A stretch of 64,000 bases of DNA, taken from assembly GCF_013377885.1 (NCBI RefSeq), contig NZ_JABKAU010000001.1:62001-126000 (forward strand). Reading direction: 5' to 3'. The notes beneath the pieces were generated by a model. That model ran no database searches. It worked only from the letters and a program-made list of their open reading frames with translations, and was not told the DNA's origin. Below, piece by piece: positions 12,914-46,937 of the stretch (the stretch's first letter is position 1; the number at the start of each line of letters is the position of its first letter). A program made the translations under genes and the position numbers. This stretch comes from Hymenobacter lapidiphilus (GTDB taxonomy: Bacteria; Bacteroidota; Bacteroidia; Cytophagales; Hymenobacteraceae).

Positions 12914-13065
12914 AAGTCAGCAAACAAAGCGGGGCGGGAAACTGTAACATAGCCGGCACGACAACCGCACCGCCGGTTATGCAGTAACAATGGTGCCAAA
13001 AGTAGGTTGACCTGTTACGGGAAACGTGAAGTTCTCGGTTTTTTGATAATTTTTTTAGAGAAAAG

Positions 13066-13096
13066 TTTTCATCCTGTTGGTCTGCTCGTACATTTG
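13066..13096 (+). promoter_or_regulatory. Probable his operon promoter (Bacteroidota sigma-70 type)
   Basis: TACATTTG at 13089-13096 matches the Bacteroidota -7 consensus TAnnTTTG. About 20 bp upstream, TTTTC at 13065-13069 is a weak -33 match (consensus TTTG). Transcription would start near 13100, about 15 nt before the leader-peptide ATG. Confidence 0.55.
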
Positions 13097-13114
13097 CCCC
13101 GCTACTTAGCCCTT

Positions 13115-13243
13115 ATGATTTTCTCCGCGCCTCGTTTTACTGCCCTGAGCCACCCGGCCGCCCCCGTAGCGGGCCGCCCGGCCGGGGCCGGCGCGTCTGA
13201 GTCTGCCACCTGGCATCATCACGGGCACCATTCCTCTTTCTAG
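13115..13243 (+). CDS. Histidine-rich leader peptide of the his operon (hisL-like)
   Basis: A 42-codon frame, ATG 13115 to TAG 13243, ends ATWHHHGHHSSF; five of six codons in one run are His. It starts just after a promoter-like element and stops 240 nt before hisG, the usual layout of a translation-coupled attenuator: ribosomes stalling on His codons when charged tRNA-His is scarce alter the downstream RNA fold. An 8-bp hairpin (13230-13249) overlaps the end of the peptide. The His run directly before hisG makes chance unlikely, but the start codon and full fold are inferred. hisL in enterobacteria is the functional analogue; no sequence homology is claimed. Confidence 0.75.
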   Translation: MIFSAPRFTALSHPAAPVAGRPAGAGASESATWHHHGHHSSF

Positions 13244-13345
13244 AGGAATGAACGCATCATATTGACCCGTTGGGCGAGTTGCATCAGGCTCCCCGGCCCC
13301 CGGAAAAACGGTGGCCCGGTCGGCCTCTGGCCTTACCAAACCGTT
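13230..13345 (+). promoter_or_regulatory. Candidate his attenuator RNA structures
   Basis: ATTCCTCT (13230-13237) pairs with AGAGGAAT (13242-13249) across TTCT at the leader stop codon. Downstream, AACGGT (13307-13312) can pair with ACCGTT (13340-13345), enclosing a GGCC-TCT-GGCC hairpin (13322-13332). A pyrimidine-rich tract (about 13351-13380) follows. I could not identify a classical stem with a T-run, so which structure terminates is unresolved. Confidence 0.4.
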
Positions 13346-13482
13346 GTGGGTCTCCCTTTCTGTTCTGCTTTTCCACTTTCCCGTCGCCGTTTCGGCCACC
13401 CGGGCCAGCTGTCAACTCTTCCCTAATCATCAATTGAGCCCAAACGGCCAATTTGTGATTCTTACTTCTTAATCAAAAAAGA

Positions 13483-14334
13483 ATGCTCCGTCTGGCTATC
13501 CAGAAATCCGGCCGCTTAAGCGAAGACTCCCTGAACCTGATTCGGGAGTGCGGTATCAGCTTCCTCGCGGCTTCCAACAAGCTCAAAACCGAAGCCACCA
13601 ACTTTCCGCTCGAAATCCTGTACCTGCGCGACGACGACATTCCTGGCTACGTGCAGGACGGCGTGGCCGACCTGGGCATTGTGGGCCAGAACGTGCTGGT
13701 GGAAGCCGGCTTTCCGGAGCTGGAAGTGGAAGGGCTGGGCTTCAGCAAGTGCCGCCTGAGCCTGGCCGTGCCCCGCGCCGCCGCCTACGACTCCATCCAG
13801 AGTCTGCAAGGCGTGAGCATTGCCACCTCGTACCCCAAAATCCTGGGCGATTACCTGGCCGGGCAGGGCGTGCAGGCCCACCTGCACACCATCAGCGGCT
13901 CGGTGGAAATTGCCCCCAGCATCGGGCTGGCCGAGGCCATCTGCGACATCGTGAGCAGTGGCTCGACGCTGCTTGGCAACGGTCTGCGCGAAGTGGAAAC
14001 CGTGTTCCGCTCCGAAGCCGTGCTCATTGCCAACCAAAACCTGAACGCCGAGAAGAAGGAGCTGCTCGAGCAACTGCTGTTCCGGATGCAGGCCGTGCGC
14101 CGAGCCCGCCGCAATAAGTATATCATTCTGAACGCGCCCGTTGCGGCCCTGGACGCAGTAAAGCAGCTGCTGCCCGGTATTAAGTCGCCCACTATTACCC
14201 CGCTGGCCGAAGAAGGCTGGGTGTCGGTGCAGTCGGTGGTGAACGAAGACGACTTCTGGCATATCACCAGCCAGCTCAAGGCCGTCGGCGCCGAAGGCAT
14301 CCTGGTGCTCCCGATTGAGAAAATGATCAGCTAA
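13483..14334 (+). CDS. hisG: ATP phosphoribosyltransferase, long form
   Basis: 283 residues; first enzyme of histidine synthesis, condensing ATP with PRPP. N-terminal two-domain catalytic part (MLRLAIQKSGRLSEDS, DGVADLGIVGQNVL, AEAICDIVSSGSTL including the PRPP loop region) followed by a ~75-residue ACT-like C-terminal regulatory domain (KYIILNAPVAAL, WVSVQSVVNEDDFW). This is the hexameric, histidine-feedback-inhibited long form, which needs no HisZ. The ATG follows an A-rich stretch (AATCAAAAAAGA), usual for this phylum. Confidence 0.97.
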   Translation: MLRLAIQKSGRLSEDSLNLIRECGISFLAASNKLKTEATNFPLEILYLRDDDIPGYVQDGVADLGIVGQNVLVEAGFPELEVEGLGFSKCRLSLAVPRAAAYDSIQSLQGVSIATSYPKILGDYLAGQGVQAHLHTISGSVEIAPSIGLAEAICDIVSSGSTLLGNGLREVETVFRSEAVLIANQNLNAEKKELLEQLLFRMQAVRRARRNKYIILNAPVAALDAVKQLLPGIKSPTITPLAEEGWVSVQSVVNEDDFWHITSQLKAVGAEGILVLPIEKMIS

Positions 14335-46795: not shown

Positions 46796-46868
<73 letters not shown>

Positions 46869-46889
46869 CATTTTAGCACACCCGGAACG

Positions 46890-46937
46890 CCCGGAAACTT
46901 GCTTCTCGCACCGCGAAGGCACGTTTCCGGGTTTTTT
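46890..46937 (+). terminator. tRNA-Thr terminator
   Basis: CCCGGAAAC (46890-46898) pairs with GTTTCCGGG (46923-46931), followed by six T. Confidence 0.8.

What the first reader, a model, noticed from the sequence alone, without database searches (positions are those of the whole stretch)
13066..13482. Histidine-operon leader peptide with HHHGHH: translation-coupled attenuation in a Cytophagales
A 42-codon frame directly after a TAnnTTTG-type promoter ends in WHHHGHHSSF and stops 240 nt before hisG. A run of five His codons in six positions right before the his operon is what an attenuator needs. An 8-bp hairpin overlaps its stop and complementary segments lie downstream. I did not find a standard T-run terminator, so the antitermination logic may differ from the enterobacterial model.
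Basis: partly seen in the sequence, partly recalled or inferred. Interest (0 to 1): 0.72.

Follow-up and report, generated by a model that had tools for sequence, protein, structure and literature searches.

The report
Histidine leader switch lacking usual terminator
A short reading frame rich in histidine codons sits before the histidine-making genes of Hymenobacter and its relatives and very probably lets the cell sense its histidine supply, but it lacks the standard transcription stop signal that such switches usually carry, so how it switches is open.

Summary
A 42-codon ORF (13115-13243...WHHHGHHSSF*) follows a TAnnTTTG promoter and precedes a full hisGDCBHAF-hisIE operon. Its His run is the only such six-codon window in six frames of 64 kb; 151 of 153 distinct family loci upstream of hisG have >=4 His in 7 codons, shuffles 2 of 1530.

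In a class-wide Bacteroidia sample the leader usually looks like a textbook attenuator: 30 of 36 have a T-run intrinsic terminator, and in 19 of these 30 a stretch after the His codons complements the terminator's 5' arm. In the family only 9 of 153 have such a terminator, and the window's leader has none. Yet the same genome has T-run attenuators at trpE and pheA, so the loss concerns his. In its place the window's group keeps a hairpin across the leader's stop codon, 8 nt, CATATNG, then two GC-rich hairpins.

Best reading: ribosome-mediated attenuation of his by His-tRNA supply, with a weak or factor-assisted termination step. The sensor is well supported; the output is inferred. New variant of a known kind: leader-peptide attenuation was already reported in outline for Flavobacterium.

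The parts
13060..13070 (+). GAAAAGTTTTC palindrome in the -33 region of the leader promoter; role unknown
   Evidence: AAAAnTTTTCAT is in all 11 group A rows printed
13089..13096 (+). TACATTTG, Bacteroidota-type -7 box of the leader promoter
   Evidence: TAnnTTTG 0-45 nt before an in-frame ATG in 140 of 153 family loci; shuffles 52 of 3060
13115..13243 (+). leader peptide ORF, 42 codons, ending WHHHGHHSSF*
   Evidence: conserved
13214..13231 (+). His run HHHGHH (regulatory codons)
   Evidence: only window of six codons with >=5 His in six frames of 64 kb; >=4 His in 7 codons in 151 of 153 family loci
13230..13249 (+). h1, 8-bp hairpin across the leader's stop codon
   Evidence: a perfect stem there beats shuffles in 58 of 61 group A and 26 of 29 group G loci, 3 of 36 class loci, 0 of 25 group C, 0 of 8 group B, 2 of 26 D, 2 of 4 F
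13258..13264 (+). CATATTG, conserved unpaired motif 8 nt after h1; possible pause site
   Evidence: CATATNG in 85 of 99 h1-type leaders, shuffles 36 of 4950, class loci 1 of 36
13272..13294 (+). h2, GC-rich hairpin with covariation
   Evidence: 39 of the 44 both-side changes lie here
13295..13316 (+). h3, GC-rich hairpin
   Evidence: 98-99% of cells paired; 4 of the 44 both-side changes
13322..13332 (+). h4, small GGCC/GGCC hairpin read by eye; followed by a short T tract in some relatives but TTACC here
   Evidence: by eye; T run of >=4 at stop+75..+110 in 22 of 61 group A loci, 9% in shuffles
13483..14334 (+). hisG, first gene of the his operon, which runs to hisIE (ends 21877)
   Evidence: TIGR00070, then hisD, hisC, hisB, hisH, hisA, hisF, hisIE, each over its curated cut-off

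Best explanation
A ribosome-mediated attenuator of the his operon. Transcription starts a little before 13115 and a ribosome loads on the 42-codon leader. With ample His-tRNA it passes the His run and leaves at the stop; h1 forms across the stop codon, RNA polymerase pauses near CATATNG, and the GC-rich hairpins downstream lead to termination before hisG. With scarce His-tRNA the ribosome stalls on the His codons and covers the 5' arm of h1, which begins inside the last His codon; the RNA folds otherwise and transcription runs into hisG. In most of this family the termination step is not a standard T-run intrinsic terminator; most likely it is a weak terminator with a short or missing U tract, helped by a pause and/or by NusA, NusG or Rho. 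Shown: ORF, promoter box, conserved His run, h2 covariation, conserved h1 and CATATNG, absence of a T-run terminator. Inferred: translation, stalling, pausing, refolding and the way of termination.
For: His run: 151 of 153 family loci with >=4 His in 7 codons, shuffles 2 of 1530; class sample 27 of 39 at >=4 and 36 of 39 at >=3 (shuffles 1 and 22 of 390). Promoter box before the ORF: 140 of 153, shuffles 52 of 3060. Full his operon downstream. Class relatives show the textbook form: terminator in 30 of 36, antiterminator-like complement in 19 of those 30. Structure in group A: 44 cells changed on both sides against a shuffled mean of 10.2, 0 of 500. CATATNG in 85 of 99 h1-type leaders, shuffles 36 of 4950. 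The h1+CATATNG model hits just before hisG in 15 of 16 relatives with a hit (the 16th, G196, could not be placed) and in all 12 order genomes with a hit (places from 9 and 18). hisG's start is not masked by the leader, so a transcriptional output is favoured; short T tracts after h4 are enriched in group A (22 of 61 against 9%).
Against: No RNA or physiological data. No antiterminator is supported in group A: ACGGG:CCCGT is pairable (93%) but its changes are not compensated. In group C the 1:2 helix shows no covariation above shuffles; in group G RNAalifold predicts h1 alone. The pause consensus G-10 Y-1 G+1 fits 40 of 61 group A but 3 of 29 group G (the G at +1 was required by the search). 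Base composition gives no consistent sign of a Rho loading site across groups. 30 of 40 sampled genomes of the same order outside the family lack even 3 His in 7 codons.
Confidence: 0.6

Rival explanations
1. Plain intrinsic attenuator with a degenerate terminator: h3/h4 and a short U tract are enough for the Bacteroidota RNA polymerase, and scores trained on E. coli miss it. No factor is needed.
For: T run of >=4 after h4 in 22 of 61 group A loci, 9% in shuffles (the range was chosen after seeing the alignment); group C has D>0 in 7 of 25 and T runs of >=6 at +45..+75 in 6 of 25 against 4%.
Against: The same genome uses strong T-run terminators at trpE (D 36) and pheA (D 55) leaders, and 18 with D>0 lie in this window. 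The window's own h4 is followed by TTACC. Group A D>0 in 1 of 61, group G 0 of 29.
Confidence: 0.2
2. Post-transcriptional control: the stalled ribosome changes translation of hisG or stability of its mRNA, with no premature termination.
For: Explains the missing terminator; attenuators that mask a ribosome-binding site are known (PMC9413887, passages).
Against: hisG -15..+10 is not more paired than with shuffled leaders: more paired in 21 of 61 group A, 8 of 29 G, 11 of 25 C. Conservation falls after about 13317, long before hisG. mRNA stability was not tested.
Confidence: 0.12
3. The ORF makes a small His-rich protein with a function of its own, for example metal binding, and is not a sensor.
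For: The peptide's middle part is similar among close relatives.
Against: It sits upstream of hisG in 152 of 153 family loci at >=3 His in 7 codons, its N-terminal part and its end differ widely among groups while the His run stays, and in the class sample the same place carries terminators.
Confidence: 0.03
4. Chance ORF or spurious reading.
For: None found.
Confidence: 0.01

Closest known systems
Enterobacterial his operon attenuator (hisL; Rfam RF00514 His leader)
   Same: Leader ORF with a His run just before hisG, hairpin near the leader's end, presumed response to His-tRNA; a hairpin-stabilised pause is known there (PMC9291695, passages)
   Different: No match to Rfam at gathering score; no T-run terminator; Bacteroidota promoter; conserved CATATNG
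His leader attenuators of other Bacteroidia (class sample here; hisG 5' element of Flavobacteriaceae, PMC9723704, passages)
   Same: His-rich ORF upstream of hisG
   Different: 30 of 36 class loci have a T-run terminator; stop-codon hairpin in 3 of 36 and CATATNG in 1 of 36
trpE and pheA leader attenuators of the same genome
   Same: Cognate-codon leader peptides in front of amino-acid genes
   Different: Strong GC hairpin plus T run, D 36 and 55
tna operon leader of E. coli (Rho-dependent; recalled)
   Same: Leader ORF with a ribosome-controlled, non-intrinsic termination would be the same idea
   Different: There the ribosome stalls on ample tryptophan at the stop codon; a Rho role here is untested

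Membership tests
Ribosome-mediated amino-acid attenuator (general kind) | Short leader ORF with a run of cognate codons directly upstream of the operon | tested here: met
Ribosome-mediated amino-acid attenuator (general kind) | Promoter upstream of the leader ORF, so that leader and operon share a transcript | tested here: inconclusive
   TAnnTTTG in 140 of 153; no mapped transcription start
Ribosome-mediated amino-acid attenuator (general kind) | Intrinsic terminator between leader and first gene | tested here: not met
   window's locus not among D>0 rows; family 9 of 153
Ribosome-mediated amino-acid attenuator (general kind) | Competing antiterminator helix | tested here: inconclusive
   group A: no competing helix with compensated changes; class relatives 19 of 30
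Ribosome-mediated amino-acid attenuator (general kind) | Expression responds to supply of the amino acid or its charged tRNA | not testable with these tools
   needs an experiment
Rfam RF00514 (His leader) | Score at or above the family's gathering threshold | tested here: not met
   only a tRNA in the window
Rho-dependent leader (tna type) | Rho needed for termination in the leader | not testable with these tools
   only base composition seen, not consistent across groups
Translational attenuator (masking of the first gene's start) | Leader pairs with and hides the hisG start | tested here: not met
   hisG -15..+10 more paired than shuffled controls in 21 of 61 group A loci
Hairpin-stabilised pause (hisL type) | Hairpin at fixed distance plus G-10 Y-1 G+1 | tested here: inconclusive
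   8-nt spacing to CATATNG in 78 of 97; full consensus 40 of 61 group A, 3 of 29 group G

The most novel reading that the evidence does not exclude
A his-specific attenuator class without a T run: a hairpin formed over the leader's stop codon and CATATNG 8 nt further make a hairpin-stabilised RNA polymerase pause, and termination under histidine excess depends on a factor instead of an intrinsic terminator. It replaced an ancestral T-run terminator, while the trp and phe leaders of the same cells kept theirs.
Probability: 0.25. Interest if true: 0.72.

Novelty: new variant of a known kind. Interest (0 to 1): 0.5.

Why it matters
Amino-acid attenuation has been worked out mainly in Proteobacteria. 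Here one genome holds three leader switches side by side, two with textbook terminators (trpE, pheA) and one without (his). That makes the question of what can stand in for the terminator in a leader-peptide switch directly testable, and it offers a conserved hairpin-plus-motif module for studying pausing and termination in Bacteroidota.

Tried and rejected
Helix ACGGG (His-Gly codons) with CCCGT: 93% pairable, but codon changes there are not compensated (alignment, by eye); not claimed. Long-range GACCCCGTTGGG with CCAACGnnnGGGTC: seen by eye in part of group A only; not claimed. Mutually exclusive short hairpins GCCC/GGGY/RCCC in Pontibacter: seen by eye, with one suggestive triple change (L105), but RNAalifold predicts h1 alone. 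Group C helix of 22 pairs: 98.4% paired, covariation equal to shuffles. CATAT pairing with the hisG start: the base before ATG is not constant in group A (by eye); dropped. A second promoter next to hisG: TAnnTTTG between leader stop and hisG in 1 of 61 A, 0 of 8 B, 0 of 25 C, 1 of 26 D, 3 of 4 F, 5 of 29 G, 1 of 36 class; not general. A Rho site by base composition: no consistent picture. ilvD: one weak candidate leader among 8 loci; left.

Limits and dropped rows: 17 duplicate upstream regions and one unplaced locus (L188) were dropped. One search listed only part of its 197 matching genomes' places; the 60 extra family loci were chosen by me from those listed. The 40 order loci and 40 class loci were also my picks, of 123 and 64 genomes with a hisG match. 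The class sample of 39 includes two loci (L166, L170) of the window's own order; without them terminators are 28 of 34. The first terminator scan stopped 140 nt after the leader's stop; one search covers the whole leader. Groups A-G were set by the leader's last residues. The 99 h1-type loci are groups A and G plus nine picked by eye. In one search, 12 of 97 spacings (0 or 1 nt) come from looser, earlier matches. The structure counted was derived from the same alignment, which favours its percentage of paired cells. The HisIE start used (21230) was my choice inside a longer listed ORF.

Full report
WHAT IS THERE. The window lies in a Hymenobacter genome (G000 contig 1; nearest named HisG 99% identical, H. 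terrestris). At 13115-13243 an ORF of 42 codons ends ...SATWHHHGHHSSF. TACATTTG stands at 13089-13096. hisG starts at 13483 and heads hisG-hisD-hisC-hisB-hisH-hisA-hisF-hisIE; each of the eight proteins passes the curated cut-off of its NCBIfam model. In six frames of 64 kb only this place has five His in six codons, and 1 of 5000 shuffles of 13066-13482 makes one. Rfam lists nothing here at gathering score.

CONSERVATION. I gathered 250 hisG loci (30, 140); one could not be placed and 17 upstream regions were duplicates, leaving 232: 153 of the family (Hymenobacteraceae by record names), 40 of the order outside it, 39 of the class sample (two of the 39 belong to the window's order). ORFs with >=3, >=4 and >=5 His in 7 codons: family 152, 151 and 125 of 153 (shuffles 117, 2 and 0 of 1530); order 10, 7 and 4 of 40 (20, 0 and 0 of 400); class 36, 27 and 17 of 39 (22, 1 and 0 of 390). 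So the leader is near universal in the family, common in the class sample and missing from most of the order sample. TAnnTTTG lies 0-45 nt before an in-frame ATG in 140 of 153 family loci (shuffles 52 of 3060) and in 28 of 46 others with >=3 His (21 of 920). In group A, the window's type (61 loci, 46 distinct leader ends), entropy is highest at third codon positions (0.66, 0.74, 1.05), His positions varying between CAT and CAC.

TERMINATORS. I scored hairpin-plus-T-run terminators (D) from the leader stop to hisG. Class sample with leader: D>0 in 30 of 36, above 20 in 26. Family: 9 of 153 (A 1 of 61, B 0 of 8, C 7 of 25, D 1 of 26, F 0 of 4, G 0 of 29). Order outside the family: 1 of 10. Dinucleotide shuffles over a shorter range gave D>0 in 0-4%. 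The stretch after the His codons complements the terminator's 5' arm better than shuffles at p<=0.05 in 19 of 30 class loci, as the textbook antiterminator would. Strong terminators are normal in this organism: 18 sites with D>0 in the window, nine of them within 150 nt after a gene end on the same strand. The same genome carries T-run attenuators at trpE (leader ending AWWWPYGISGRDNLCVR, D 36, L260) and pheA (Phe/Tyr-rich leader read by eye, D 55, L271). Among relatives a Trp leader was found at 11 of 13 trpE loci and all 11 have D>0; 9 of 11 pheA loci were scored and all 9 have D>0, while the Phe-run criterion itself was met at 6 of 11. The T run is therefore missing at his, not in the lineage.

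WHAT STANDS IN ITS PLACE. The alignment of 61 group A leaders folds into h1 over the stop codon, h2 and h3. Of the pair cells 97.2% pair; 44 cells changed on both sides against a shuffled mean of 10.2, and four of five measures exceed all 500 shuffles (the fifth: 6 of 500); slid versions pair 43-61%. Of the 44, 39 lie in h2, 4 in h3 and 1 in h1, so h1 is nearly invariant here. Hairpins of other sequence at the same place in group C, L122 and L128 (by eye) suggest that h1 is kept as a structure. A perfect stem over the stop beats shuffles in 58 of 61 A, 26 of 29 G, 4 of 5 other Cytophagales, 2 of 4 F, 2 of 26 D, 0 of 25 C, 0 of 8 B and 3 of 36 class loci. CATATNG follows in 85 of 99 h1-type leaders (shuffles 36 of 4950; class 1 of 36; group C 0 of 25; group D 2 of 26), 8 nt after h1 in 78 of 97 located. 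A covariance model of h1 and the motif, built from 46 sequences, hits once in each of 16 of 39 relatives and in 12 of 141 order genomes (G282 has a second, partial hit on the other strand). Where I hold the hisG place, 15 of 16 and 12 of 12, the hit lies just before hisG; many of these genomes supplied the model (with 9, 18). Conservation falls after about 13317.

HOW IT MOST LIKELY WORKS. The sensing half is that of any amino-acid attenuator: scarce His-tRNA stalls the ribosome on the His run, where it covers the 5' arm of h1. The output half is unsettled. hisG's start is not hidden by the leader: -15..+10 is more paired than with shuffled leaders in 21 of 61 A, 8 of 29 G, 11 of 25 C and 10 of 36 class loci, so I favour a transcriptional output. 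T runs of >=4 at stop+75..+110 are enriched in group A (22 of 61 against 9%) and of >=6 at +45..+75 in group C (6 of 25 against 4%) (ranges chosen after seeing the alignments), which fits weak or decayed terminators. h1 with CATATNG at a fixed distance recalls the hairpin-stabilised hisL pause with G-10 Y-1 G+1 (PMC9291695, passages). Group A has Y at -1 in 61 of 61 and G at -10 as well in 40; group G fits fully in 3 of 29; the G at +1 was part of the search pattern. The base of h1 lies 14 nt from the putative 3' end, farther than I recall for hisL. A weak terminator helped by a pause or a factor is my best guess, not a result.

AGAINST MY READING. No competing antiterminator is supported in group A; the group C helix has no covariation above shuffles; in group G the consensus fold gives h1 alone; composition does not point to Rho consistently; D is trained on E. 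coli. In one family of the same order both forms occur: T-run (L166, L170) and h1-type (L116, L125, L128, L129), so the change happened more than once or in both directions.

WHAT IS KNOWN. Work on F. psychrophilum reports clues for leader-peptide attenuation at amino-acid operons and a structured element before hisG conserved in Flavobacteriaceae, without Rfam match (PMC9723704, passages). [quoted passage not shown] Small ORFs in long 5' UTRs of B. thetaiotaomicron are mentioned as leader-like (PMC7366714, passages). The Bacteroidota his-gene survey has no hit for 'leader' (PMC8305728). Attenuators that mask a ribosome-binding site are known (PMC9413887, passages). My searches listed nothing that I recognised as this variant; I read no paper in full, and the library lacks most subscription papers.

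VERDICT. Observation confirmed; interpretation supported for the sensor, open for the output. A new variant of a known kind, notable because the terminator is lost at his alone while sister leaders in the same genome keep theirs.

Noticed in passing
L260 (own genome) and L251-L263: trpE has a Trp leader (AWWW...) followed by a strong T-run terminator: Trp leader at 11 of 13 loci, terminator at all 11.
   Followed up: yes
L271 (own genome); L268, L269, L270, L272: pheA has a Phe/Tyr-rich leader with T-run terminator; four relatives seem to have two such leader-terminator units in tandem (read by eye).
   Followed up: partly
13060-13070: GAAAAGTTTTC palindrome just upstream of the leader promoter's -7 box, present as AAAAnTTTTCAT in all 11 group A rows printed; could be a -33 element or an operator.
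   Followed up: no
L166, L170 against L116, L125, L128, L129: One family of the same order holds both forms of His leader, with and without T-run terminator.
   Followed up: no
L155: A class-level locus outside the order with leader ending HHSS, a TCCTCC/GGAGGA stop hairpin and CATAT, and no T-run terminator.
   Followed up: no
L081, L100, L250: In Adhaeribacter-type loci the 3' arm of h1 can pair with a segment directly followed by a T run, which would give an unusual switching order (D still below 0).
   Followed up: no
L081, L095, L100, L078-L080, L250: TATCTTTG stands 16-38 nt before the hisG ATG, a possible second promoter downstream of the leader.
   Followed up: partly
L005, L009, L012 upstream of hisG: AATTCTTAATT-like short repeats just before the hisG start in close relatives.
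   Followed up: no
46796-46931: tRNA gene followed 22 nt later by a strong T-run terminator.
   Followed up: no
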